35,006 nucleotides of DNA from the IMG/VR virus record IMGVR_UViG_3300046804_001102, positions 1-35,006 of that record; one strand, 5' to 3'. The position numbers were made by a program, and so were the translations under genes. The notes beneath the pieces are model-generated. The model was not told where the DNA came from and made no database searches. It saw only the letters and a list, made by a program, of their open reading frames with translations. Below, piece after piece: positions 119-35,006 of this stretch. The stretch is from a virus. Position 1 is the first letter of the stretch; each line of letters begins with the position of its first letter.

Positions 119-808
119 TTACTCTGTCACGTAAGACAGTTCGGTATCATCGTCCAGTATCTCCAAGACGGTTTCTAGTTTCTCCACGTCCGTACACTTG
201 CTGGCCTTCTCGCGTACCTCAGCGCGTAGGCGCTTTAGTTCTTCCCCGTGCGCTTTGTTCTCTTCGCTGGTCTTGGCCTTGATCACGGTTTCCAGCTCTT
301 TTAATTCTTTTTTGAGGTCGACTATTTCGCCGTTCTCGCGTTTCTCTTTCGCTGGTTTCCCTTGCGCGATAGCCTTGGCGATCTTTTCATAGTTGCTGGC
401 GATCTGGTCTTGTAGTGTGTGCGCTGGCGTGTCGGCGTGTTTCTCCAATAACTTCGCGGTTTTCTCCGCGCGTTCATTGGATTTTTTCTCTGCGCTTGCG
501 CTGGTGCTCTTGGGCTTTGTCAGTCCAAATAATTCGTCAAGGGTTTTCGCGAAGCGTGTCCACGCCGTGTCGCTGGCTTCGGCGGTGTGCTGGGGGTTGT
601 CGTGAATCCATCCGTCTTTCCATTGTGTCGCGTATTCCGTCCATTGCTCATAGGTCGGATTCGATCCAAGGGTATGGGCGCAAGCGGTCGCGATCTCCAG
701 CATTTCGGCGCGGTTTCGGCTAGCGCGTCCGCCGTGTTCGTATGCTTGGGTGCGCTGGTCGAATGTAAGCGCGTGTACGACCTCTGCTACTGGTGTCATT
801 TTTGGCAT
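119..808 (-). CDS. hypothetical coiled-coil protein, paralog 1 (229 aa)
   Basis: I do not recognise the family. The N-terminal half (about residues 1-95) is a mixed helical region. From about residue 100 to 215 the protein is a charged Lys/Glu/Ala-rich stretch that should form a long coiled coil, ending in an acidic tail (CTDVEKLETVLEILDDD). The same order and several matching blocks (NPTYEQW / EPSYTDW, AWTRFAK / AFTRFAN, CTDVEKLETVLEILD / CTDVERIQTACDILD) occur in the 205-aa protein at 1076-1693, so the two are paralogs. The start is supported by GGAGG six bases upstream. Base composition is far more GC-rich than in its paralog, and the strand is opposite to the main early operon. A role in DNA binding, partition or scaffolding is possible but only a guess. 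Confidence 0.8.
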   Translation of the reverse strand: MPKMTPVAEVVHALTFDQRTQAYEHGGRASRNRAEMLEIATACAHTLGSNPTYEQWTEYATQWKDGWIHDNPQHTAEASDTAWTRFAKTLDELFGLTKPKSTSASAEKKSNERAEKTAKLLEKHADTPAHTLQDQIASNYEKIAKAIAQGKPAKEKRENGEIVDLKKELKELETVIKAKTSEENKAHGEELKRLRAEVREKASKCTDVEKLETVLEILDDDTELSYVTE

Positions 809-4753: not shown

Positions 4754-5815
4754 ATGGAAGTTCGTATGACAACAGAAGTTTCTTTGGCTGAAGCAGAGGA
4801 CGCGATTCTTGCTTTCGGAAATGAGAATGCAATACATCTAGTCGGTGAGCCAGGGGTTGGTAAGACCGCTATGTTTGAGCGCATCGTAGCAAAGACTGGG
4901 TTTCGTGGTGTGTACATCGATACGCCGAATACAGAGTTGGGTGATATCGGTATCCCCATGCCAAACCACGATACCAAAACAACAACGCTGTACCCCAACG
5001 AGCACTGGGGTTTCCACTTAGGCGACCCTTGCGTTATCTTTATTGACGAGTTCACCAAACCATCTAGCATGGCGGTGCAGAACATGTTGCATCCACTACT
5101 CAACGAGAGACGCATCAGCGGTTCCAAACTACACACCGACTCTATCGTGATAACAGCGGGTAACAACAGCACCGATGGGGTGGGCGACTTACTGAAGTCT
5201 CATAGCATCAACCGCATTACGATCCTACCAGTACGCAAGCCTACTGCTAACGAGTGGATTGAGTGGGGTGCATTGAATGGTATCGCGGCTGAAGCCTTGG
5301 CATGGGTGAAGGCGTATCCCCATGCACTAGCATCGTACCGAGACGGTGGGCAAGCGGAGAATCCTTACATCTTCAACCCCAAGACCCCACAGAAATCGTT
5401 CGTCTCTCCTCGCTCGTTGCATCGTGCATCTAACATCTTGTTGAAGCGTCACATGGTTACACGCAATGCGCTGATAGCAGGACTCACAGGCTCAATCGGT
5501 GAGGCGGGTGCGCGTGACATGCTAGCGTATGTGGAGGTTGCCGACAGTCTACCGACATGGGCTGAAGTCATTGATGACCCCAAGGGTTGCAAGTTACCAA
5601 CATCACCCGCAGCGTTAAACATCATGGCTTATGGTGCTATGCAACGGATAGACAGAAGCAACATCAGTAAGTGGTTCGAGTACCTCAAGCGTACACCGAA
5701 GGAGTTGCAATCCGTGTTCTGCTTATCAACTGCCAAGCACCCTGAGAAGAAGCAAGTCTTGATGACTAGCGGTGCATTCGTTGAGTGGATGCGTGCTAAC
5801 CAGTATTTGTTCTGA
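4754..5815 (+). CDS. MoxR/CobS-like AAA+ ATPase (353 aa)
   Basis: Walker A GEPGVGKT (residues 31-38) and Walker B VIFIDE (94-99), followed by a sensor-1 region IVITAGNNS, give a complete AAA+ ATP-binding core. The layout and lack of extra N-terminal domains match the MoxR/CobS group. Those are chaperone-like ATPases that remodel partners carrying von Willebrand A (VWA) domains. Such a VWA partner is encoded at 6691-7944, and a DUF3150-like protein at 8123-8992, which together form a plausible complex. The start follows TTGGAGTG at 6-8 bases. The role in phages is not settled (metal insertion, protein remodelling or virion maturation have been discussed for relatives). Confidence 0.88.
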   Translation: MEVRMTTEVSLAEAEDAILAFGNENAIHLVGEPGVGKTAMFERIVAKTGFRGVYIDTPNTELGDIGIPMPNHDTKTTTLYPNEHWGFHLGDPCVIFIDEFTKPSSMAVQNMLHPLLNERRISGSKLHTDSIVITAGNNSTDGVGDLLKSHSINRITILPVRKPTANEWIEWGALNGIAAEALAWVKAYPHALASYRDGGQAENPYIFNPKTPQKSFVSPRSLHRASNILLKRHMVTRNALIAGLTGSIGEAGARDMLAYVEVADSLPTWAEVIDDPKGCKLPTSPAALNIMAYGAMQRIDRSNISKWFEYLKRTPKELQSVFCLSTAKHPEKKQVLMTSGAFVEWMRANQYLF

Positions 5816-6559: not shown

Positions 6560-6707
6560 GAAAGACTTTGTAATGGCGTGGCTACTCGCTATGCGTGCGG
6601 GTAGTTCTGAAGCAACGTTTGGTGATACACGGATAGCAAACAACATACACCAAGCACGGGCAATCTATAAACAACTAATGGAGGAATCAAATGAAACTAA
6701 CGGCTGA
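6552..6707 (+). CDS. hypothetical small protein (51 aa)
   Basis: AAGGAGGTGAGTG lies directly upstream of ATG 6552, close to a perfect Shine-Dalgarno. The peptide is helical (MSEKDFVMAWLLAMRAG...). It overlaps the preceding gene by 8 nt and the VWA gene by 17 nt. Function is unknown. Confidence 0.6.
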   Translation: MSEKDFVMAWLLAMRAGSSEATFGDTRIANNIHQARAIYKQLMEESNETNG

Positions 6708-7944
6708 ACAACGGATAGAGCGCACCCATGTGCGCCTCATGCAGAACCCTGACTTTTGTTTATTCTCTGGAATATTCATGGTTGGTAAGGTTACTGTGAC
6801 AGACAACGCAATAACTGCCAAGACCAACGGCAGAGATGTAGAGTATGGACGCGGGTTTGTAGAACTACTAACGGACAAGCAACTTGCTTTCTTGGTAGTA
6901 CACGAAGCGATGCACAAAGCGTATCGTCACTTGACTGTATGGAAGCATCTGCCTAATAAGAAGATCGCTAATCTTGCGATGGACTTTGTTATCAACTTAC
7001 AGATACGCGACACCGACCCACATGAGAAAGAGGTTGCTATGCCACGCTATCCAACAGGGCATCCGCTTGCGGGTAACTTGATGGGTTGCTATGACGAGCA
7101 GTATCGTGGTATGGACACGAAGCAAGTCTACGACTTGTTGATCGACAAGTGCAAGGGTGGTAATGACGATGGTGATAGCGAAGGTGAGGGTGAAGGGAAC
7201 GGTCCCGCCTCCGAGGGACAAACTGACAAATCGTCAGAATGTCTCGATGACCACGATTGGGAAGGCGCGCGTGAAATGACGGATGAGGAATACCAAGACT
7301 TGGAACGCGAGATCGACTCTGCATTGCGTGAGGGCTCTATGCTAGCAGGGAAGATGAAAGGTCGTGTGCCCCGTGGCATCGAAGAAATCCTGCACCCCAA
7401 GGTTGATTGGAAGGAAGCGTTGCGTGAGTTTATTAAATCAGCAACACGCGGTGGTGATCAATCATCATGGCGTAGACCTAATCGTAGATACCTAGCAAGC
7501 GACATCATCATGCCAAGTGCCCAGACATTTAAAGCCGAGTGTATTGCTATCGGGATAGACACATCAGGTTCTATTAGCGGACCCGAACTAGGTAGGTTTC
7601 TTGGAGAGATGAAATCAATCTGCGATGAGGTAGCGCCAGAGAAAGTCGAGCTGATGTATTGGGATAGCCATGTAGCAGGACACGAGACCTATGGTCGTGC
7701 TGAACAAGAGAACCTAATCAACATCACGAAGCCAAGAGGAGGTGGTGGTACTACACCCGCGTGTGTTCCTGCTTTTATGAAAGAGAAACGCATCGAACCA
7801 CAATGCACCGTCATGCTAACTGACGGTTATTTCTACGGCGATGGATGCGGTGACTGGTCGTCATCGACTGCACCAGTCTTGTGGTGCGTGGTAGGTAACA
7901 AGAACTTTGTGCCTACTGTTGGTCAAGCCGTTTGTGTGGAGTGA
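6691..7944 (+). CDS. DUF2201-type putative metallopeptidase with VWA-like domain (417 aa)
   Basis: The N-terminal part has a zinc-binding HEAMH motif (residues 71-75) in a helix context typical of the DUF2201 N-terminal putative metallopeptidase domain. A Gly/Glu/Asp-rich linker (about 150-195) follows. The C-terminal part is a VWA-like domain with a MIDAS motif DTSGS (290-294) and a later acidic LTDG. This architecture usually pairs with MoxR/CobS-type AAA+ ATPases, and such a gene lies 876 bp upstream in the same operon. The linker DNA contains palindrome copy 6, in frame and tolerated. SD GGAGG is upstream of the start. Known roles of relatives are chelatase-like or protein remodelling; the phage role is uncertain. 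Confidence 0.85.
   Translation: MKLTAEQRIERTHVRLMQNPDFCLFSGIFMVGKVTVTDNAITAKTNGRDVEYGRGFVELLTDKQLAFLVVHEAMHKAYRHLTVWKHLPNKKIANLAMDFVINLQIRDTDPHEKEVAMPRYPTGHPLAGNLMGCYDEQYRGMDTKQVYDLLIDKCKGGNDDGDSEGEGEGNGPASEGQTDKSSECLDDHDWEGAREMTDEEYQDLEREIDSALREGSMLAGKMKGRVPRGIEEILHPKVDWKEALREFIKSATRGGDQSSWRRPNRRYLASDIIMPSAQTFKAECIAIGIDTSGSISGPELGRFLGEMKSICDEVAPEKVELMYWDSHVAGHETYGRAEQENLINITKPRGGGGTTPACVPAFMKEKRIEPQCTVMLTDGYFYGDGCGDWSSSTAPVLWCVVGNKNFVPTVGQAVCVE
7215..7245. repeat. 31-bp palindrome, copy 6 (inside a coding linker)
   Basis: Arms 7215-7228 and 7232-7245 pair at 10 of 14 positions. It lies inside the VWA gene, in the low-complexity linker, where it encodes part of EGQTDKSSECL. Placement in a tolerant linker is what a mobile palindromic element would show, but an intragenic regulatory site is also possible. 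Confidence 0.7.
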
Positions 7945-24482: not shown

Positions 24483-27400
24483 TTATTTAAACTTCTTAGC
24501 GCCGTACAGAATTGGTGCAACCTCTGGCATCATGTTCTCTGGTATGTCAACTCCGTAGTTTACGGCAGCGTTAACTAACCCTTCCAGTTTGTTTTCAAAA
24601 CTCTTATCGATTGCGTCTTCTGGATCAGGCACCAAGTCTGGATGCCTTTCAGCAAATTTATAAAACTCGCGTCGAGCCACATTTTCTCCGGGACTAGCCT
24701 TCAAATGCTCTGCCCATATGCGGTCTAACAACTTTGTTTTCGTAGTAATTAGGCGTAACTTGGCTTCTTCTGCCTGTGACCCAGCGCGTTCTTTTACTGC
24801 TAAATTTTCTGGACGTATACCAATTGCCTGTGATGCAATATCCCATTTTGTAAGTTCATCTTTGTGCAAAATTGTTTTACCGCTGATACGTTTTGCGCCT
24901 TCTTCTGATAAGCGGTACGCCACTTCTGGTTTAGCTAGAGCACCAAACAATTTTTCAAAAGCACGGTCGTAGTGCCCTTGCTGTGAAAGTTGGTATGCCG
25001 AAGGTACGTTGTCAAACATATAACTAACAAGAGGCCCTAAAAGACTAACCGCCATCTCTTGAACAGATTGTTTTACGTCAGCATAGTAGCGAGAGTTTCT
25101 AAGCAACATTTCCTGTGGGTTGATACCAATGCGCTCAGACACACTCCAGTTTGTCAACGTAGAGAATAAACCACGAGCAGTTGCGTGTGCTGCTTTAATA
25201 CCTAGCGTTTCTGCGGCCTCTTCGCTCATACCAGCTTGCATGGCAAGTTCAGTTACTGCTCCACTAAAGTCACGCATCAGCATGTTGTAGAACCACACTT
25301 CAAAACTCTCAAGATTTTCATCATCTGGAGCAAATAAACTTGCCACCGCTGGCAATATTGACACTAAGAAATATATTGGTGTTCCTTCCGCACCAGCCAT
25401 AACAAAAGCCGTGGCGTTTATCAATACAACTTTTCTGAAGGCTTCTTTGTATATTTCTTTTTGGAAGTCGGTATATTCCTTTAGGTCTCTTTCTATCAAT
25501 GCAGTTTTATTAGGATCAGTTTTATAGCGATCTTCTAGGTATGCAATGAATTCTTTACGCTCAGAACTTGTAAGTGGTGCACCGAACGCTAACCACATAT
25601 CGCGGAAGATGGCATAAGTTATGGTTACAGCAACCTGCTTCATCTGCAATACCAACGCACCAGCAGGGTTGGCAAATACGCGCCCTTTAAGCTGACGCAA
25701 GTATTCACCAAGAGATAACGCGGCAGCATCTCGTGCTTCTTCTATGGCTTTTTCAAAAGCTTCGGGTTCAGTATATGTAAGCGGTACCCCATTAGGATCA
25801 CGCTGAATAACGCCACGCGCGTCACGCTTTTCTGCACCTAAATATTTATCATACGCAAGTTCAAACACCGACATTAGCGTAACTTCACGCGTAAGTCTGT
25901 CCATTTGATGGAACGGCGCAAAAACAGCTTGCGTAATGTAAGCCCAGTTTCTAGCGTAGAGATTAGATGGACGCTCTGCAAAGTCAAATGCGTCGTTTGT
26001 CTGTGATATGTGTATGTCGCCGTCATCGGTGAAGCGTTTTGCCGCACGACCCAACGCTCCAGTCAGAGGAGCACCTTCTACTATTGATGGCCACTTTATT
26101 TGAGCAAAGTCTCTTTTTGCAAGAGGAGCCATCGTTCGAGTCGGCGCAGTAGCTAAGTAACGTCCAAAATATTTAGCTATCACTTTGTTTGATTTAACAA
26201 CACCATATTTACCGCCAATAGTGCGTTCTGCCATGATAGGAAACGCAATTATGTTCATTAACGCACTAGCAGGTGCTGCTAGATTAACTAAGAACATAAA
26301 TTGACTTGCGCCGCCAGCAAACTTGGCAAAACCGCTCTTGTCCTCAATACCGAACATGTAGCGGTAGCGTTTTTCTAGTTCGTTGATGTAATCAAGAAGT
26401 ACAGTCTGGCGTTTTCCCGGTATGTACTTACGTATGTAGTCATGTGCATTTGCCATGTTATTTAGGAATGGCTGCACAAACTTAAACCGGGATTGTTGAT
26501 ACGCTGCACGAGTAGCAGTTTCTGCAAACACACGAAGCATGTCTGAACTAGCACCCTGCACTGCACGGCGATTGATAAACATTTTACGCATACTCTGCTG
26601 TGGCAGTAGGATATAAATTAGTTGTTCAACTGAACCCCTAACTTCGCTCTTAACTTCATCAGCTGTTTTGTCGCGTGTATAAGGTATACCACCCTTTATT
26701 TCAGTTACTGTGTCACTTATGGCGTCGATAAGTTCATTTACATCCTTTAGTGCGCCTGCAACATCTTTGTTGTCGGAGTACATGGTTGATATTTGATTAC
26801 CAGCTTTCATGCTAGCAGCAGCTTCTTGCTGTTTCACGTTTCCAGCCATTAATTGTTCATATCGTTTATCGTAAGCTGCATCTCTTTCCAAATGACTTTC
26901 AAAGGTATAAAACTCAGAGAACCCATTAGAAGTAACTTGGAACCAAAAATCACCAAAACGACGCAATGGGAAATAGGGTCTGTTAAACGACTCCATACCA
27001 AACTGCATATCAATCTTACGAATTAATGCTTTCTTTTCAGCAGAAGTTTTACCGCTGTTCAAGACGCGCAACTTCATCTCACGTATGGTGGCCTTCAATA
27101 AATCTGTGTAATAGTTGCGAACCTCTCTATATAACTGTTGGAAGTCACCATCAAGACCATTCCATGCAGCCTCAAGTTTTGGGTGTGCTATTTTTTCATT
27201 TGGTTTGGCTGTTGCAGGATTTACATAACCGGGACCTAAAGGATCCACCTCGGTGCCTTGAATCGTAGCTTCAAGCATGATCGCCGACATGAGTCGAGAT
27301 TGTTCTGGACGCCTACGTTGCATCTCCGCCCACTTATTTAATATGGTCGATGCCTCGTGCATCATGCGTCCACGGTAGGAGGTCATGTTGTTGCTAATTG

Positions 27401-30400
27401 ATATTGCCGTACCTAAGAATGGGATACTTCTTTCAACCTCCCCTTTCATCATGGTAAGACCTAAAACTGGCAAATGCGGTATACGCGCCATGTACCCTGC
27501 TGAACGGCGCAGATTTGCATAAAATTTATCCGCTTCTGGGAAACTTGTAATCGACGCTTTAAGCATGTCGCTGAACTTGACCATTACGTCTTCTGCCGCA
27601 CGCCAAGTACTAGTAAGTGGCCCCCTCTTATATCGCATTCTTTTTGGAGGAGCAAAACGTAGGGGTCCACGCTTCATATCTTCAGAACGCTCAGCAGAGA
27701 AAATTTCATTAGCTTGCTTCATTGCAGCAGAAGCAACATTTCCACTACCAAATAGCTTCATAACAAAGCGTATGAAGCCGTTAAATATAGATGACCTAAC
27801 CGCTTTATATGGCACACCACGTAATTTATTTTGGAAGTCTGGATTAGTAAGTGCTTCCGCTACAAACTCGTAGATGTCGGTAAACCCGTAGTACGTACCG
27901 CCGAGTTTGTCCTTGGCGTAATAGAACATGGTGTACAAATCAGTAACTGCTTCGCGCTGTCGATCATTAAGCAACCGTGTGTTACGGATCATGTATTCTG
28001 TAGCTGCATGAACAACTTCATGCAACAACACACGGTTCTTTAATCCAAACGGTCCTTTGCTATTTAGCGATATAGCATCAAGGCTTGGTACGAACATACC
28101 AGAGCGTTTTAGCCCGGGCATGTTTTCATCGTAACTTGCACGTACAGCAGCCAACTGCATTTGCAGCGGTGTAGTGTCGTATTTAGAACTCTCTAAAACT
28201 TTAAGTCCTTCGTAGACTTTTTCTAAACTTTCTGGTTTATCGTAGTTAGTAAAGTACTTGTTGTAGACGTCAGGGAATGCACGGCGTACATAAGTAAACA
28301 GTTGTACCTGCGCATCGGCTGTCTTTAAATCTATAGACTGACGGATTAACTCACGAGCGTTATCAAACGCAATCGATGTAGGTAAATTTAGTTCGGCAAG
28401 TCGGCTTGCTAATACCGAATACAGTCCAGAAGTATTTTGTGCTAACGCACGTAGTGCACCGCTAATGTCATTGCGGTTTATCGCGGCTGCTACATCGGGG
28501 TGTAGACCTTTTGGTGTAACTTGTTTAGCAGGAACTTCGTAGATACCTTCGCGTAGAAGCTCATTTGTTACAAACGTGCCATCCCCTCGGATTACAGCCT
28601 CAAGTCCCTGAATGATAGGGTGATCGCTCTGCATACCAAATATGGACTTGAGCGCTTGTACAAACTCACGCATCCACTGTTTAACTTTAGCAAAGCGGGT
28701 GCCAGCACCATAACGTCCAGCTAGTAACCCAGAACCACGAACAGCCCAGAATTCAGATGGGTTGAATAACGCATACAGGTTTATTGGTACTTCACCACTG
28801 GTTAGCATTTCTTCCGCAGCTTTATACGCCGCAGATGAACCTGTAGAGTTTGCAACCAAAATAAGCGTTAAGTAGTTAACCTTGTTCGTATCGTTCTCGG
28901 CCTTGGCTTTCTTTAGCTCTGCGGCAATTTGCTTTCCCCACTCTTTACGGATAGCACGACGAACATCGTCAGGCAACATGCGCTCAAGGTGGTGCAGGAT
29001 TTCGTGAACAGCAACATCAGCCTTAGTACCGTAGTACTGACCAGTTTTTGCATCTTTGCTAGTTAAGATGCGGACTAATTCTTCAAATGGAACATAGAAC
29101 CCTGCGGTACCCGCCATCTCAGCTTGGACTTTTTTATTCTCAGGAATTGCAATCTTGATACCAAGATTGGAAGCCATCGCAGGATTTTTAGATAAGAACC
29201 AAATAGCGAAGTCGGCGGTCTCGGGGCTGATGCGTCCCGCTTTCTTAGCATCTTCCAGTGCTTTAACGACTCGACCGAAACCACGCATACGCTGGTTTAT
29301 CTGATTGCGTTTGATTAGTGTTTGTTGAGCAACGCGTTCTTGGAAACGCAACATCTGACCAGCAAAGTCTTCTGCCGACAACTTACCGTCTTGGAACAAC
29401 TTAACAAGCTGTGCAACCCCAGCCATGTTTGTTTTGACAAAGTCGGCAATGTCAATAGGTATGCTGGTAGCTGCGGTTGTTGCAACCTCAACAATGCTCT
29501 TAAATATGTCACGGCGACGATCGCCTTCCATAGAAGCAAGCTGCTGTGGGTCCGGTGCGGGCTCATCTTGTAGCGGTGGTATTTCTTCAACTACATCTTT
29601 AGTCGGCGGAGTAAACGTATTACGCTCTAATCCATCGCGGTTCTCTTGCTTACCAGATAGCATAGTTGCAAGATTTGCGGGATCATCCGGCACAATGAAC
29701 AGCGGCGAGCCATCCATCTGCTGTAAGTGGTTGTTTACTAAATAGCCAAAAGTTTGCTTATTTACATTGACGCACCCAAATGAATAGCGCGAGTCGGTTT
29801 GATCTTCACTAGCTATCGCACGGGCGCGCATTGCAGCATCTGTCTCATTCAACCAAACTGAATGGAACATAGTGACGCTGTATTCGCCACTTATTACTTT
29901 ATCTAGTACAAAGACCTTTTTAAAATCATAATCCCCAGCAGTTCTTGCTTCGCCGGGACTACGCGTAGCGTCACGTAAACCGAAAGTAAAAAACCCTGCG
30001 GGAGTTATGCGATTCTGAGGCAGATCATTGTTGCCTTTATAGAAGTCGCCATACGCTTTGCCCAGCAAAGTCTTTGTGCGTAAAATAATTTTGCCGTCAG
30101 GACCAAAAATATACGTATGTGAAGTCGGCTTGTCTACTACCGTAAACAACTTGTTGTCGCGCTCTATGCGATCTTTTACTACTGGATAGAGCGTGCGGTA
30201 AGCCTGTTTACCGCCTTCCGACATTTCTTCCGTCCCCGCCGGAAGGTCAGCATATATCTGCTCTTGGTAAGTAACTGTCTGAGTTGGGTAGGCTATAAAC
30301 TCTGGGACGCTAGCATTTGTCGGATTAAAGATAATCGCTGCCGATAGCACAGCTGCGTGCAGCTTTTTGATGATGTCTCTGATGTTTGAGGCAACAGCGC

Positions 30401-33353
30401 TTGCACCTTCGTTAGCAAAACGAACAATGTCTTCTTTAACACGAGAAAGAAACTTTTCAGAGTTAGAGGACGCCCCATAGTGCGCTGTAAGTTTCTGAAG
30501 TTCTAAAGGCGATAGCGCGCTGTTTACTGCATCAGATACGACGCGTGCTTCTACATCAATAGTAAAAGGCTCGTTTGTTAGTTGTAACGGGGCTTTTTGT
30601 TTTTCTGTTTCGCGCCGAACAAGTTCTTTAATTGCTTCTTCTTTTGTATTAGCAATAAAGCTGGTCGTAGTGGTGGCGTTTGCATCATGCCATCCGGGTA
30701 GCCCCATAGATTCAGCTGAATTCATACGCTGAATTTCATACGTAGCCCCGTTAGAAAATTCTATTTGCGTAACAGAATTACCAAACTCGTCTTTGGTTTT
30801 TGTTTCATTTATTACGCGAACCTCACCCTCAATAGTAAAAGGCTCGTTTGTTAGTTGTAGCGGGGCTTCTGGCGCCACTCTACCTGACTCTATAGCTGTA
30901 ATTTGCCCCCACAAATCGTCCATTTTGCGGGTAAGCTGATCCCATTGAGCACGCTTTTTGGTACCGGGTTTTGGCTCACGTCCTGTTGGTGACAACAGTT
31001 TATTGCGTTCGCCTTTCAGCGTGGCAATCTGTTTTTCTAATTCAGGTACTGTTTGTTGTTCAGGTTTACTTAGTGCATAAATGGCTTTACCATTAGCCTC
31101 GGCATTTTTAGCTTCTTCAAGATTAGTAATTGGTACAAGATCAGTCGGGCCACCATATTTATTTGGTGTACCTGCATAGTAGCTACCACCTTCCCACAAC
31201 CCAGTAGGACTATCTGTATCAACCCAATCATCTATATCTATACCATTAGATGGGTTTTCTGATTTGATTTGTTTTGCAATTTCGCCAGACACAGGCACAA
31301 GCGCAGTTGATGGCGCTTTGCTCGGAACGGTCACTTCTTCTGTTGGCGTTTGTAGCGCTATTTCGGTTTGTTTGGTTTCTCGGTTGTAAACCCCTTCTTG
31401 AATTGGTTCTCCGGGAAAGTTTGCTTCCGCTGCTGTGCGTGCAGCCTGTTCAGTGGGGAACGTACGCTCGAGCGCTGGACGCCCGCCACGGTCTAACCAA
31501 TCCAACCCAAATGTGCCGTCGTTATAGCGGCTAACTTGAATAGCAGGTTTAGGTTTTTCTGGCTCTACCGCAGGTGCGGCTTCAATTTTTTCCGCAGCTT
31601 TCTCCGCTGCTGGTCTTGGTGCAAAGATATCAGGAGGCTCTGGGCCTTCCTCTTCTGTAGTGGTTATTGGTGTTACGTTTTGAATTGCAGCGCGCTCGGC
31701 GGCGGCTTCACGTTCTGCTTCTAACCTATCGGCGTCTGCACGCTCGGCTTCCAACTTATCTTCGTCGCCAATAGTGGACAGATCATTTATAAGTTCGTCA
31801 GCAGTTTTCTTTGTACGTAAGAATCCTTTAGACCGAGCCAACTCCTCGGTAGTCATTGGTAGCCCCTTGCGGGCAATGCTATCGGCTAACTTAGTAGCCT
31901 GTTCGTTTACTATTTCACCAGTGCGACCCAACGCGCGTGCTAGTACTGCATGACCTCCACCCATACCTACACCAGCCGCTAAACTTTGTGCTGCCGCTTC
32001 CGGTACACCCTCATTCCAAGGACGACCAGTTGCTAAATTGGTAAATATCTGTTCTTGCGTGCCTTGAGGAAGTTCTTCAAATATCCCTTCTTTAACCATT
32101 TCGTTGCGCACATTACGCAAGAACGATTGGTTTGCACCAACGCCAACGCCCTTAATTCCAGCAGAACGCGCAGCAATTTCAGTTTCAATGTCACCAATAC
32201 CTAGATTTGTCGCTATCTTTCCAGACACAGCGCCAATAGCCGCAGTTCCTAATCCAGCAGCCAACGCAGGTGCTACATATTCATCCCAGTCTCTACCAGC
32301 AGCGCGTGCTTGATCTGCAATAGAGCCAGCAGTTTGTGCGCCCTCGGCGGCGCTTGCGGCGCCAGCAATTTGAGCCGCTTTTTCTTTTACCTTATCAGTA
32401 ACGTATTTCTGAGCCGCAAGCCCTTTAAGTCCTAGAGTCTCGGCTTCTGCCGCAGCCTTACCACCAAGATAACGAACGAATTGCCCACCAGCCGCACCTG
32501 CGCCAATAGTTCCGGGAAGCGACTCTACGATGCTATTTAAGAGCGCCAATGGGTTAACGGCTAAAGCACCAAGAGTATTAAAAAATCCTTTTGTCTTTTC
32601 AACTTCTTCTAGTTGCAACTGCATCTGTGGAGATTGCAGTCCGGTTAGAAAGCGGTTAGTAGCTTCAGGGTCATACCCAAGCTTATCGAGCATCTTGCCC
32701 CACTGCCCGAGCTGTAGGGGGTTAATATTTGGGTCTTCTGGGATCCATCCAGTAGCAAGTTGTGCTAGACCAACGCCTGCCTGCCCCAGCCCGACAACGC
32801 CTTTTTCTAGCGCTCCCGCAATATCTTGTGCAGCAGATCCAAAACCATAGCCTTCTGCCTCTGCCTGACGCTTAAGTAAAAAATCTCTAGTAGTAGCCTG
32901 TTCTGCGGCCTTAGCTGCTGCGGCCTCTTGCGCCTTTTGTTGGCGGGTTTGCCCCCGCATAATCTGCTGTTCTACAGCTTCGCGCTGACGGCCGGGCGTA
33001 AACATAATCGACTCAGGACTACCGCTACGGCGCATAGTCTCCAAGTTCTTTTCGTAATCGACAGTCGGCGGCTCCATCTTGACGCCGCGTTCAAAGATTG
33101 ACTTTCCAGTCGGCGCGGGGCTTGTAGGTTCCGCTTCCGCTTCGCCCATGCTTACACCTGCGGTTCCCGTAGGTAACGCAGACAAGTCAGCTTTACGGGG
33201 GGTTTTACGCCCACCGTCTATGTGCGTAATTCCTCGGTCAGAGAAATCGGTTTTGGCTCTTTCTAACGCCTGATCAAACGAAATACTATCAGGGGCATTT
33301 TCATAGACGTGAGACGAGCCGTCGTCAAAGGTTACGGTAATGTCGCGTGCCAT
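24483..33353 (-). CDS. giant multidomain virion/polyvalent protein: L,D-transpeptidase and two gluzincin domains (2956 aa)
   Basis: A single uninterrupted 2956-residue frame. Order: an N-terminal small domain (1-48); a Gly/Ala-rich hydrophobic region (about 165-480); a charged coiled coil (about 500-560); repeated linkers; a YkuD-type L,D-transpeptidase domain (about 1045-1215) with H1164 and catalytic SFGCVNV (C1194), preceded by a signal-like hydrophobic stretch (about 996-1015). Then gluzincin 1 HEILHH (1450-1455) with a later SEFWA; gluzincin 2 HEVVH (1778-1782) with E1829 in YEFVAEA; and a long C-terminal region with hydrophobic segments. Such combinations are known from phage 'polyvalent proteins', packaged with DNA and delivered into the cell. 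The transpeptidase could remodel peptidoglycan; the peptidases could process this protein or host targets. No ribosome binding site of strong quality is seen upstream. Confidence 0.85.
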   Translation of the reverse strand: MARDITVTFDDGSSHVYENAPDSISFDQALERAKTDFSDRGITHIDGGRKTPRKADLSALPTGTAGVSMGEAEAEPTSPAPTGKSIFERGVKMEPPTVDYEKNLETMRRSGSPESIMFTPGRQREAVEQQIMRGQTRQQKAQEAAAAKAAEQATTRDFLLKRQAEAEGYGFGSAAQDIAGALEKGVVGLGQAGVGLAQLATGWIPEDPNINPLQLGQWGKMLDKLGYDPEATNRFLTGLQSPQMQLQLEEVEKTKGFFNTLGALAVNPLALLNSIVESLPGTIGAGAAGGQFVRYLGGKAAAEAETLGLKGLAAQKYVTDKVKEKAAQIAGAASAAEGAQTAGSIADQARAAGRDWDEYVAPALAAGLGTAAIGAVSGKIATNLGIGDIETEIAARSAGIKGVGVGANQSFLRNVRNEMVKEGIFEELPQGTQEQIFTNLATGRPWNEGVPEAAAQSLAAGVGMGGGHAVLARALGRTGEIVNEQATKLADSIARKGLPMTTEELARSKGFLRTKKTADELINDLSTIGDEDKLEAERADADRLEAEREAAAERAAIQNVTPITTTEEEGPEPPDIFAPRPAAEKAAEKIEAAPAVEPEKPKPAIQVSRYNDGTFGLDWLDRGGRPALERTFPTEQAARTAAEANFPGEPIQEGVYNRETKQTEIALQTPTEEVTVPSKAPSTALVPVSGEIAKQIKSENPSNGIDIDDWVDTDSPTGLWEGGSYYAGTPNKYGGPTDLVPITNLEEAKNAEANGKAIYALSKPEQQTVPELEKQIATLKGERNKLLSPTGREPKPGTKKRAQWDQLTRKMDDLWGQITAIESGRVAPEAPLQLTNEPFTIEGEVRVINETKTKDEFGNSVTQIEFSNGATYEIQRMNSAESMGLPGWHDANATTTTSFIANTKEEAIKELVRRETEKQKAPLQLTNEPFTIDVEARVVSDAVNSALSPLELQKLTAHYGASSNSEKFLSRVKEDIVRFANEGASAVASNIRDIIKKLHAAVLSAAIIFNPTNASVPEFIAYPTQTVTYQEQIYADLPAGTEEMSEGGKQAYRTLYPVVKDRIERDNKLFTVVDKPTSHTYIFGPDGKIILRTKTLLGKAYGDFYKGNNDLPQNRITPAGFFTFGLRDATRSPGEARTAGDYDFKKVFVLDKVISGEYSVTMFHSVWLNETDAAMRARAIASEDQTDSRYSFGCVNVNKQTFGYLVNNHLQQMDGSPLFIVPDDPANLATMLSGKQENRDGLERNTFTPPTKDVVEEIPPLQDEPAPDPQQLASMEGDRRRDIFKSIVEVATTAATSIPIDIADFVKTNMAGVAQLVKLFQDGKLSAEDFAGQMLRFQERVAQQTLIKRNQINQRMRGFGRVVKALEDAKKAGRISPETADFAIWFLSKNPAMASNLGIKIAIPENKKVQAEMAGTAGFYVPFEELVRILTSKDAKTGQYYGTKADVAVHEILHHLERMLPDDVRRAIRKEWGKQIAAELKKAKAENDTNKVNYLTLILVANSTGSSAAYKAAEEMLTSGEVPINLYALFNPSEFWAVRGSGLLAGRYGAGTRFAKVKQWMREFVQALKSIFGMQSDHPIIQGLEAVIRGDGTFVTNELLREGIYEVPAKQVTPKGLHPDVAAAINRNDISGALRALAQNTSGLYSVLASRLAELNLPTSIAFDNARELIRQSIDLKTADAQVQLFTYVRRAFPDVYNKYFTNYDKPESLEKVYEGLKVLESSKYDTTPLQMQLAAVRASYDENMPGLKRSGMFVPSLDAISLNSKGPFGLKNRVLLHEVVHAATEYMIRNTRLLNDRQREAVTDLYTMFYYAKDKLGGTYYGFTDIYEFVAEALTNPDFQNKLRGVPYKAVRSSIFNGFIRFVMKLFGSGNVASAAMKQANEIFSAERSEDMKRGPLRFAPPKRMRYKRGPLTSTWRAAEDVMVKFSDMLKASITSFPEADKFYANLRRSAGYMARIPHLPVLGLTMMKGEVERSIPFLGTAISISNNMTSYRGRMMHEASTILNKWAEMQRRRPEQSRLMSAIMLEATIQGTEVDPLGPGYVNPATAKPNEKIAHPKLEAAWNGLDGDFQQLYREVRNYYTDLLKATIREMKLRVLNSGKTSAEKKALIRKIDMQFGMESFNRPYFPLRRFGDFWFQVTSNGFSEFYTFESHLERDAAYDKRYEQLMAGNVKQQEAAASMKAGNQISTMYSDNKDVAGALKDVNELIDAISDTVTEIKGGIPYTRDKTADEVKSEVRGSVEQLIYILLPQQSMRKMFINRRAVQGASSDMLRVFAETATRAAYQQSRFKFVQPFLNNMANAHDYIRKYIPGKRQTVLLDYINELEKRYRYMFGIEDKSGFAKFAGGASQFMFLVNLAAPASALMNIIAFPIMAERTIGGKYGVVKSNKVIAKYFGRYLATAPTRTMAPLAKRDFAQIKWPSIVEGAPLTGALGRAAKRFTDDGDIHISQTNDAFDFAERPSNLYARNWAYITQAVFAPFHQMDRLTREVTLMSVFELAYDKYLGAEKRDARGVIQRDPNGVPLTYTEPEAFEKAIEEARDAAALSLGEYLRQLKGRVFANPAGALVLQMKQVAVTITYAIFRDMWLAFGAPLTSSERKEFIAYLEDRYKTDPNKTALIERDLKEYTDFQKEIYKEAFRKVVLINATAFVMAGAEGTPIYFLVSILPAVASLFAPDDENLESFEVWFYNMLMRDFSGAVTELAMQAGMSEEAAETLGIKAAHATARGLFSTLTNWSVSERIGINPQEMLLRNSRYYADVKQSVQEMAVSLLGPLVSYMFDNVPSAYQLSQQGHYDRAFEKLFGALAKPEVAYRLSEEGAKRISGKTILHKDELTKWDIASQAIGIRPENLAVKERAGSQAEEAKLRLITTKTKLLDRIWAEHLKASPGENVARREFYKFAERHPDLVPDPEDAIDKSFENKLEGLVNAAVNYGVDIPENMMPEVAPILYGAKKFK
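29709..30221 (-). other. YkuD L,D-transpeptidase domain within the giant protein
   Basis: Residues about 1045-1215. It contains the typical features of the family in order: an IFGPDGKIILRTKT strand pair, ITPAGFFTFG (TPAG motif), MFHSVW with H1164, and the nucleophile motif RYSFGCVNV with C1194 followed by a short helix and SPLFIVPDD. Family enzymes exchange or cleave peptidoglycan stem peptides. All expected active-site residues appear present. Confidence 0.85.
30556..30594 (-). repeat. internal duplication in the giant gene, copy 1
   Basis: About 38 bp nearly identical to 30829-30867, with one mismatch. Both encode KAPLQLTNEPFTI-type linkers followed by similar residues (EARVVSD versus EVRVINE). 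DNA identity this high in linkers of a diverged protein suggests a recent duplication or recombination. Confidence 0.8.
30829..30867 (-). repeat. internal duplication in the giant gene, copy 2
   Basis: The second copy, 273 bp from the first, encoding APLQLTNEPFTIEGEVRVI. Between the copies lies a short beta-type domain with NGATYEIQR. Confidence 0.8.
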
Positions 33354-33358
33354 AGTCT

Positions 33359-34969
33359 TTAGAAGTTACTACGGGTTACTGTACCACTCCCACCTTTAGT
33401 TTTGTTTGCTGGTGCGGCGCTATCCTCAAAACTAGGTATACCACCAGTTTCGGTAATTATTTCGTCAATAGATTTGCCTAATACTCCTGTGCGTTTACCA
33501 AGTTCTTCTCTATATTTCTCAGCACGTATTTCTTTTACACGCGCAGCAGCTTTTGGAGATTTATCGCCAAGTAAACCTTCTGAAGAAATTTGCATGTTTG
33601 CCGATTTACGCGCTGCGTCAGCAGCGTCTTTAGCCGCTCCCGCCAAAAGTTTGCTGGTTTCAATACTAGTTTTGCCGGGTCCAACATCAGAAATTTTAGC
33701 TGCGGCCATTACATCTTTTAGCCCGGCAAGTTTAGATTCCAAGACTTTAATTTGCGGATCGTTTGGATCTTTCTGTTTTAAGTCAACAATTTGATTAGCA
33801 ATCTGCCCTGCCAAACGATCTACCTGCGGCAATTTTTCGCCGCCACTACCACCAATCCTAATTGGACGATTAGCCGTAGCAATCTTGGCTTGAATATCAC
33901 CTATAGCCTTCATCTTGTTAAGGTTAGCCGTATACGCATCTTTTTTATCTTTCTGTGCAGCTACGGCAGACTCTATAGCGCTCTTAGTCATACCCATACG
34001 TTCTTTACGTTGCGCATCGGTAATATTAAATTGCATATTAGCAAGAGCACGTTTCTCTTGACGGTCGGCTTGCAACACTTGCCCGTATGTTCTAGCAAAT
34101 GCAGAACCCGCAGCGCCGAGGCCACGCATTGTTCCCCCGGGCTGTAAAACAGCGCCCGCTGCTTCTAACGCAGCAAGACCTTTGCCTTGTTGCAACGCAG
34201 TTAAACGATCAGTTTCTGCGGTTTTAAGATTAGCTAACGCGGCACTGTATGGAGAAGGTCCTGCTAATTGTTCTTCTAAAGCGTATCTGTCTTTAATAAT
34301 TTTATTAATTTGTTCTGGGGTATATCCTTGAAACTGCAAACTTTGTATTTCTCTTGCAGTGCGCAAAGCAGCATTTGACGCATCGGCGTAAATACCCTTG
34401 TTACCCATTTCAACAGTGTTATCGCCGCCCATAGCGGCTAGTTGCGCTATTTGTACATCCGTAAAGTCGTTACCAGAACCAGAACTACCTTCGGTTGTAT
34501 AGCCAGCGTTTTCTTCTGAGGTGTTGACAAGGCCGTCATCTTTGAACGCCAAAATGCCACCACCTGCGGCGCGCACTACATGATCAGCCATTTGAGGTGT
34601 GAATGCAGCAGCAAGACCAGCGCCACGACGGATTGCATTATTTATTAGCATCTCGTCTGTAGCAAAGTCAGCAGTCTCTCTATCACCTCGTGCAAATGCG
34701 TTTTGTTGCGCTGTAGGTAACTGGCGTGGGTCAATGTGGTCTACGGCATAGCGCTTGAAACCGGGGCTCATTACGCTATCACTAATACCGCCTCTAGCGT
34801 AACTCTTTACCTCGCCGCCTTCCGCTTTACCAATTCCAAGTTGATTTAATCCATAAGCACCAAGCCCAAGACTCATCATGTTTTGCATCAAAGTTGGAGG
34901 AGCCTGATATATAGAAGAGCCAGTCTGAGTCAGCGGAGTGCCACGAATAATGTCAGACATGAAGCCCAT
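33359..34969 (-). CDS. Gly/Ala-rich, probably structural protein (536 aa or longer, possibly partial)
   Basis: The N-terminal part has hydrophobic glycine-rich stretches (MMSLGLGAYGLNQLGIG) and GGEVKSYARGGI; the middle and end are long Ala/Lys/Gln-rich helices, probably coiled coils. Composition and location directly upstream of the giant gene (5-bp gap) suggest an internal or tail virion component. The ATG at 34969 has no Shine-Dalgarno sequence and the frame stays open to the window edge (35005), so the true start may lie outside and the gene may be longer. Family not recognised with certainty. Confidence 0.65.
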   Translation of the reverse strand: MGFMSDIIRGTPLTQTGSSIYQAPPTLMQNMMSLGLGAYGLNQLGIGKAEGGEVKSYARGGISDSVMSPGFKRYAVDHIDPRQLPTAQQNAFARGDRETADFATDEMLINNAIRRGAGLAAAFTPQMADHVVRAAGGGILAFKDDGLVNTSEENAGYTTEGSSGSGNDFTDVQIAQLAAMGGDNTVEMGNKGIYADASNAALRTAREIQSLQFQGYTPEQINKIIKDRYALEEQLAGPSPYSAALANLKTAETDRLTALQQGKGLAALEAAGAVLQPGGTMRGLGAAGSAFARTYGQVLQADRQEKRALANMQFNITDAQRKERMGMTKSAIESAVAAQKDKKDAYTANLNKMKAIGDIQAKIATANRPIRIGGSGGEKLPQVDRLAGQIANQIVDLKQKDPNDPQIKVLESKLAGLKDVMAAAKISDVGPGKTSIETSKLLAGAAKDAADAARKSANMQISSEGLLGDKSPKAAARVKEIRAEKYREELGKRTGVLGKSIDEIITETGGIPSFEDSAAPANKTKGGSGTVTRSNF

Positions 34970-35006
34970 TTGTTTATATGGGTAGTTCTGATAATTTAGG
35001 AAATTC

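What the first reader, a model, noticed from the sequence alone, without database searches (positions are those of the whole stretch)
24483..33353. One 2956-residue protein with an L,D-transpeptidase and two separate gluzincin domains
YkuD active-site residues (H1164, C1194), HEILHH (1450) with downstream SEFWA, and HEVVH (1778) with E1829 are all intact in a single uninterrupted frame with hydrophobic segments at both ends. Polyvalent phage proteins with gluzincins are established; adding an apparently active L,D-transpeptidase gives a candidate for a packaged machine that modifies the cell wall on entry and then acts on proteins, possibly cutting itself.
Basis: partly seen in the sequence, partly recalled or inferred. 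Interest (0 to 1): 0.75.

Follow-up and report, generated by a model that had tools for sequence, protein, structure and literature searches.

The report
Cell-wall enzyme inside giant phage proteins
A very large protein of an uncultured short-tailed phage, probably carried in the virus particle and injected, contains a real L,D-transpeptidase-type cell-wall enzyme plus two metallopeptidase-like domains; the same wall enzyme occurs in 52 other viral sequences, all but a few clearly in giant proteins, and is missing from the published list of such injected enzymes.

Summary
Window 24483-33353 (minus strand) is one open 2956-aa frame with H1164, C1194, HEILHH1450, SEFWA1533 and HEVVH1778 where stated. 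The middle domain is a genuine YkuD fold: 39 of 43 relatives match PF03734 (best 8e-8), the AlphaFold model has pLDDT 94, and the top PDB matches are L,D-transpeptidases or L,D-carboxypeptidases. His, Cys and the SxGCxN context are invariant, and close pairs show dN/dS well below 0.2. A conserved ~330-aa block (925-1255), YkuD plus an upstream hydrophobic helix, occurs in 52 IMG/VR loci inside otherwise different proteins (2.3-4.5 kb aa when complete) and moves as a module. Metallopeptidase 1 is a very common phage family with invariant HExxH and Glu; metallopeptidase 2 resembles a virion protein of phage phi14:2. LPD39 and PLxRFG domains, and a neighbouring gene related to a DNA-ejection protein, place the protein among phage polyvalent/ejection proteins. 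A cell-wall role at entry is therefore likely but indirect. Transpeptidation versus hydrolysis is open, and self-cleavage is untested: 14 of 42 giants with a complete 3' end lack HExxH downstream. Iyer et al. 2017 never mention YkuD or transpeptidase. Verdict: a new variant of a known kind, with a widespread module that has no isolate in the phage collection searched.

The parts
24483..33353 (-). 2956-aa giant polyvalent protein gene
   Evidence: full-length relatives L002/L012, L003/L010, L011
33207..33353 (-). residues 1-49: N-terminal tag shared by otherwise different phage proteins; candidate packaging signal
   Evidence: hit H31
31794..33176 (-). residues 60-520: conserved Gly/Ala-rich N-terminal region with three moderately hydrophobic segments
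   Evidence: phrog_30335 E 5e-22
30210..30581 (-). residues 925-1048: element conserved with the YkuD domain, with a hydrophobic helix at 991-1016
29580..30209 (-). residues 1049-1258: YkuD (L,D-transpeptidase-fold) domain; H1164 codon 29862-29864, C1194 codon 29772-29774
28524..29246 (-). residues 1370-1610: metallopeptidase-like domain 1, HEILHH (1450) and NPSEFWA (Glu 1534)
27714..28136 (-). residues 1740-1880: metallopeptidase-like domain 2, HEVVH (1778) and YEFVAE (1828-1833)
27090..27476 (-). residues 1960-2088: LPD39 (large polyvalent protein associated domain 39)
   Evidence: Pfam PF18858 E 3e-12, 47 bits against cut-off 27
25845..26978 (-). residues 2126-2503: PLxRFG / tail-700 domain, with PLRRFG at 2129 and a hydrophobic segment at 2342-2376
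   Evidence: NCBIfam NF032893 E 1e-51
25320..25430 (-). residues 2642-2678: hydrophobic segment near the C-terminal part
33359..35005 (-). upstream neighbour, 5 bases before the giant gene; relative of a gene matching a DNA-ejection protein family
   Evidence: 41% over 560 aa to L003:7350-9878, which hits phrog_4287 'DNA ejection protein' E 3e-16

Best explanation
The gene encodes a giant polyvalent (ejection-type) protein of a podovirus-like phage. It is most likely packaged in the virion and pushed into the envelope with the DNA. During passage, the YkuD domain acts in the periplasm on peptidoglycan or on peptidoglycan-linked protein, helping the injection complex cross the wall. The metallopeptidase-like domains are maturation or effector proteases that act on this protein, its partners or host targets. 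Shown here: the single frame, the YkuD fold with invariant catalytic residues, purifying selection, mobility of the YkuD block as a module, conservation of the zincin motifs, and the gene context. Inferred: packaging, periplasmic site of action, the reaction catalysed, and the protease targets.
For: YkuD family and fold; invariant His/Cys in 43 relatives; dN/dS of about 0.06 for L010 vs L012 and about 0.02-0.07 for other informative pairs; the same 330-aa block in 52 viral loci. Polyvalent markers LPD39, PLxRFG, LPD38, ART-PolyVal, ParB_N, GNAT. The gene is last in the late operon after virion structural genes and a DNA-ejection-type gene in L003, while lysis has its own M15 endolysin and Rz spanin. 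Relatives found in particles: phi14:2 g065 by MS/MS. By analogy, the DarB-like giant of podovirus JC1 is virion-associated with 51 unique peptides (PMC9144972).
Against: No virion data for this phage or any YkuD-bearing relative; no isolate in the searched phage collection has the module. This copy scores below Pfam's cut-off for YkuD. The site of action (periplasm or cytoplasm) is inferred. Metallopeptidase domain 1 has no PDB fold match at E<=0.001 and the model of domain 2 is poor.
Confidence: 0.62

Rival explanations
1. The YkuD domain is a true transpeptidase that tethers the injected complex to the wall or re-crosslinks the wall around the channel, sealing it instead of digesting it.
For: Transpeptidases LdtMt2, LdtMt1 and relatives make up most of the fold matches. 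The SxGC-hydrophobic-Asn motif keeps the catalytic context. A separate lytic enzyme (M15 endolysin) exists for lysis in L003.
Against: The best PDB hit by E-value is the L,D-carboxypeptidase Pgp2 and the best by TM-score among those listed is the hydrolase DpaA. The His-Cys loop is longer than in the published motif (26 residues instead of 10 before the SxGC Ser) and contains a helix. I could not map this onto the loops that separate hydrolases from transpeptidases.
Confidence: 0.25
2. The YkuD domain is a toxin or effector acting on a non-peptidoglycan target after entry, as other enzymatic domains of polyvalent proteins do.
For: It sits mid-protein among domains thought to act in the cytoplasm; related giants carry ADP-ribosyltransferase, methylase, ParB and acetyltransferase domains.
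Against: All characterised close folds act on peptidoglycan or its attached proteins. The adjacent hydrophobic helix is conserved together with it, as expected for an envelope position.
Confidence: 0.1
3. The giant protein is a non-virion protein made late, for example to alter the wall for lysis or against superinfection.
For: Virion presence is not demonstrated for this phage.
Against: PLxRFG, LPD38/39, the ejection-type neighbour, late-operon position, a shared N-terminal tag, and virion detection of relatives or analogues.
Confidence: 0.1
4. The domains are degenerate passengers without activity.
For: Weak profile scores for this copy.
Against: Catalytic residues invariant over strongly diverged sequences and low dN/dS.
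Confidence: 0.04

Closest known systems
Polyvalent proteins of phages (Iyer et al. 2017, PMC5512222)
   Same: Giant multidomain protein with LPD39, HExxH metallopeptidase-like domains, late structural context; related giants carry ART-PolyVal, LPD38 and ParB domains
   Different: Their wall-directed domains are lysozyme, SpoIID-like, DD-peptidase and zeta-toxin-like kinase; YkuD and transpeptidase are not mentioned anywhere in the text
YkuD-family L,D-transpeptidases / L,D-carboxypeptidases / DpaA
   Same: Fold, catalytic His and Cys, SxGC motif
   Different: Embedded in a viral protein, His-Cys loop longer with a helix, Asn in place of the usual Arg after GC-hydrophobic, no own secretion signal
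DarB-like giant proteins of PEp14, Bcep22-like and P1-type phages
   Same: Detectable homology of residues 1314-2600 to the PEp14 giant; gene at the end of the virion module; JC1 and P1 members found in virions (PMC9144972, PMC9024508)
   Different: No helicase or methylase domain found here; antirestriction role not implied. Pavtok and Stean giants are annotated as (lytic) transglycosylase where this one has YkuD
Crassvirales virion protein g065 of phage phi14:2
   Same: Metallopeptidase domain 2 region: 31% identity over 108 aa, E 5e-12 in pairwise comparison, HExxH and YGFT-x2-EF-x2-E conserved; protein seen by MS/MS
   Different: Rest of the protein unrelated in these searches; the neighbouring gene there is a virion RNA polymerase subunit
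N4 virion RNA polymerase (PMC12633501)
   Different: No RNA polymerase domain detected here

Membership tests
YkuD (PF03734) | profile match | tested here: met
   39 of 43 family members match, best E 8e-8; the window copy alone E 0.011, 16.8 bits, below the 23.4 cut-off
YkuD (PF03734) | YkuD fold | tested here: met
   AF2 pLDDT 94, pTM 0.90; 49 PDB matches at E<=0.001, nearly all described as L,D-transpeptidases or YkuD-fold hydrolases
YkuD (PF03734) | motif hydrophobic-G-hydrophobic-HG(S/T)-X10-(S/T)XGC-hydrophobic-R(M/L) | tested here: inconclusive
   His, (S/T)xGC and the hydrophobic residue present and invariant; HG(S/T) reads HSV, R reads N, spacing longer (motif from PMC12729407)
YkuD (PF03734) | L,D-transpeptidase (or L,D-hydrolase) activity | not testable with these tools
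   needs enzyme assay
Phage polyvalent proteins | several unrelated enzymatic domains in one chain | tested here: met
   YkuD plus two HExxH domains in one frame
Phage polyvalent proteins | LPD or other polyvalent-associated domain | tested here: met
   LPD39 47 bits, cut-off 27; PLxRFG 176 bits, cut-off 100
Phage polyvalent proteins | delivered with the genome | not testable with these tools
   context agrees; needs proteomics
Zincin/gluzincin metallopeptidases (domain 1) | HExxH and downstream Glu | tested here: met
   invariant in the 49-row alignment
Zincin/gluzincin metallopeptidases (domain 1) | zincin fold | tested here: inconclusive
   confident model with three strands, HExxH helix and Glu helix, but no PDB match at E<=0.001 with the two-domain model
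Zincin/gluzincin metallopeptidases (domain 2) | HExxH and downstream Glu | tested here: met
   conserved in 4 close relatives, L064, L065, L069 and phi14:2 g065
Zincin/gluzincin metallopeptidases | zinc-dependent peptidase activity | not testable with these tools
   needs assay
DarB-type antirestriction protein | helicase and methylase domains | tested here: not met
   no such Pfam match in P0001 at E<=1
N4-type virion RNA polymerase | RNA polymerase domain | tested here: not met
   no such Pfam match at E<=1

The most novel reading that the evidence does not exclude
The YkuD block (hydrophobic helix plus enzyme) is an exchangeable injection module that performs real transpeptidation during entry, attaching the injected channel to the host wall or sealing the wall around it with 3-3 cross-links, the opposite of the digestion known for virion lysozymes.
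Probability: 0.2. Interest if true: 0.85.

Novelty: new variant of a known kind. Interest (0 to 1): 0.58.

Why it matters
Virion-borne wall enzymes described so far cut glycan strands or peptides. A widespread L,D-transpeptidase-fold enzyme in injected giant proteins would add a new chemistry to phage entry, possibly one that preserves or remodels the wall. It comes with invariant catalytic residues, so a single-residue mutant makes the idea testable. It also extends the published polyvalent-protein repertoire and shows that these giants exchange whole functional blocks.

Tried and rejected
PDB sequence search with P0001, the YkuD block and its alignments gave no transpeptidase; the alignment hits were NHL-repeat proteins (TRIM71 and others) matching a short beta-hairpin stretch, judged chance repeats. 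NCBIfam gave no YkuD. A GTDB genome scan with the YkuD alignment found no relative; it is pattern-based, so this does not prove absence from bacteria. The two-domain metallopeptidase model gave no fold match at E<=0.001. DarB and N4-type RNA polymerase memberships were considered and rejected because helicase, methylase and RNA polymerase domains are absent. Chimera or assembly error was rejected because three other contigs carry the same architecture.

Full report
The observation. The window is a 35,006-base virus record. Window 24483-33353 on the minus strand is one open frame of 2956 aa. Three IMG/VR loci (L002/L012, L003/L010, L011) encode proteins of the same architecture over nearly the whole length at about 59% identity, so the frame is not an assembly artefact. 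The 'hydrophobic segments at both ends' are really several segments in the first ~400 and last ~600 residues, plus one just before the YkuD domain.

The YkuD domain. Against Pfam the isolated domain scores E 0.011, below the curated cut-off. A search with the first six relatives gave 52 viral loci. Of 43 aligned members, 39 match PF03734, best E 8e-8. H1164 and C1194 are invariant, as are S1165, S1191, G1193 and N1196. The AlphaFold model has mean pLDDT 94 and pTM 0.90. Foldseek gives 49 PDB matches at E<=0.001, nearly all described as L,D-transpeptidases or relatives: Campylobacter Pgp2 (an L,D-carboxypeptidase) first, many LdtMt2 entries, and DpaA with the highest TM-scores. In the viral structure library the best hits are giant proteins of uncultured phages, one named only by a polyvalent-associated domain. 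Nei-Gojobori dN/dS for close pairs is low, for example about 0.06 between L010 and L012, and the domain is among the most conserved parts of the protein and more conserved than either metallopeptidase domain.

A module. The shared block spans residues ~925-1255: the YkuD domain plus an upstream element with a conserved hydrophobic helix. In L013, L014, L015 and L007 it is 52-61% identical, while other parts are unrelated or about 24% identical. Conversely L004, L008 and L009 share the N-terminal region (51-60%) but have no SxGC YkuD motif. The block therefore moves between giant proteins. It was not found in the phage isolate collection or, by a pattern-based scan, in GTDB genomes. Five of the loci give only short or truncated frames, so 'always in giant proteins' is shown for the complete ones.

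The metallopeptidase-like domains. Domain 1 (HEILHH 1450, NPSEFWA 1533) belongs to a family with 179 matching loci found in IMG/VR. HExxH was present in 67 of 67 frames listed (two of these, L064 and L065, were fetched for domain 2, and the search patterns favour the motif). HExxH and Glu 1534 are invariant in the 49-row alignment. The model of domain 1 is confident, with three strands, an HExxH helix and a Glu helix, but no PDB fold match reached E 0.001 for the two-domain model. Domain 2 (HEVVH 1778, YEFVAE) resembles g065 of the crAss-like phage phi14:2 (pairwise E 5e-12, 31% over 108 aa), a protein annotated from virion MS/MS next to an RNA polymerase subunit. Of 42 YkuD giants with a complete 3' end, 28 have an HExxH downstream and 14 do not, so the pairing is common but not obligatory.

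Class of protein and context. LPD39 and the PLxRFG/tail-700 domain mark it as a phage polyvalent or ejection-type protein; related giants carry LPD38, ART-PolyVal, ParB, acetyltransferase and methylase domains. In L003 the giant gene ends a run that includes an Rz spanin, an M15 endolysin, a virion structural protein and a gene matching a DNA-ejection protein family. The window's upstream gene is 41% identical to that ejection-type gene over 560 aa. The window's DNA polymerase is closest to KPP25-type and Rhizobium phages at about 36% identity. Published proteomics find the DarB-like giant of podovirus JC1 (PMC9144972) and DarB of P1 (PMC9024508) in virions; these are analogues, not close relatives of this protein.

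Mechanism. The most likely account is delivery with the DNA and action of the YkuD domain on the wall at entry, with the metallopeptidase domains as processing or effector proteases. Fold, catalytic residues, selection, modularity and context are shown; packaging, location and reaction are inferred. YkuD enzymes include transpeptidases, carboxypeptidases and endopeptidases (PMC12729407). Published criteria separate hydrolases from transpeptidases by loop shape (PMC10653827). Here the His-Cys segment is long and contains a helix, but I could not map it to those loops, so the reaction stays open.

Novelty. The catalogue of polyvalent protein domains lists lysozyme, SpoIID-like, DD-peptidase and zeta-toxin-like kinase for the wall, and contains neither 'YkuD' nor 'transpeptidase' (PMC5512222). 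YkuD occurs 10 times in a database of phage lytic proteins (PMC8310338) and in one gut endolysin (PMC13284279), so phage YkuD as such is not new. An injected, modular YkuD in giant proteins was not found in the papers searched; open-access coverage is partial.

Noticed in passing
window 33207-33353 (residues 1-49); L095, L116, L128, L074, L111, L090, L139, L033; L148:3995-5818: A short N-terminal tag is shared by giants that otherwise differ and by a 607-aa protein of phage MW202710.1 in a similar gene position. Other giants have other recurring N-terminal tags. Candidate packaging signal, compare the 30-residue capsid-targeting sequence of P1 DarB (PMC9024508).
   Followed up: partly
window residues ~829-850 and ~919-940 of the giant protein: The sequence APLQLTNEPFTI is repeated about 90 residues apart; residues 841-912 match a small stand-alone protein of Acidovorax phage ACP17 (gp084) at 40%.
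   Followed up: partly
window 4754-5815 and 6691-7944, + strand: An AAA (MoxR-like) ATPase gene is followed by a gene whose product contains HEAMH and a VWA-like stretch by eye; looks like a MoxR/VWA pair in a phage.
   Followed up: no
window 119-808 and 1076-1693, - strand: Two neighbouring small proteins look like diverged copies of each other by eye.
   Followed up: no
L034, L036, L037, L039, L045-L048, L052: In this group the HExxH lies almost exactly 311 residues after the start of the YkuD match, as if the two domains form one unit there.
   Followed up: no
L071:5724-11585: A giant with metallopeptidase domain 1 but no YkuD carries ART-PolyVal and LPD38.
   Followed up: no
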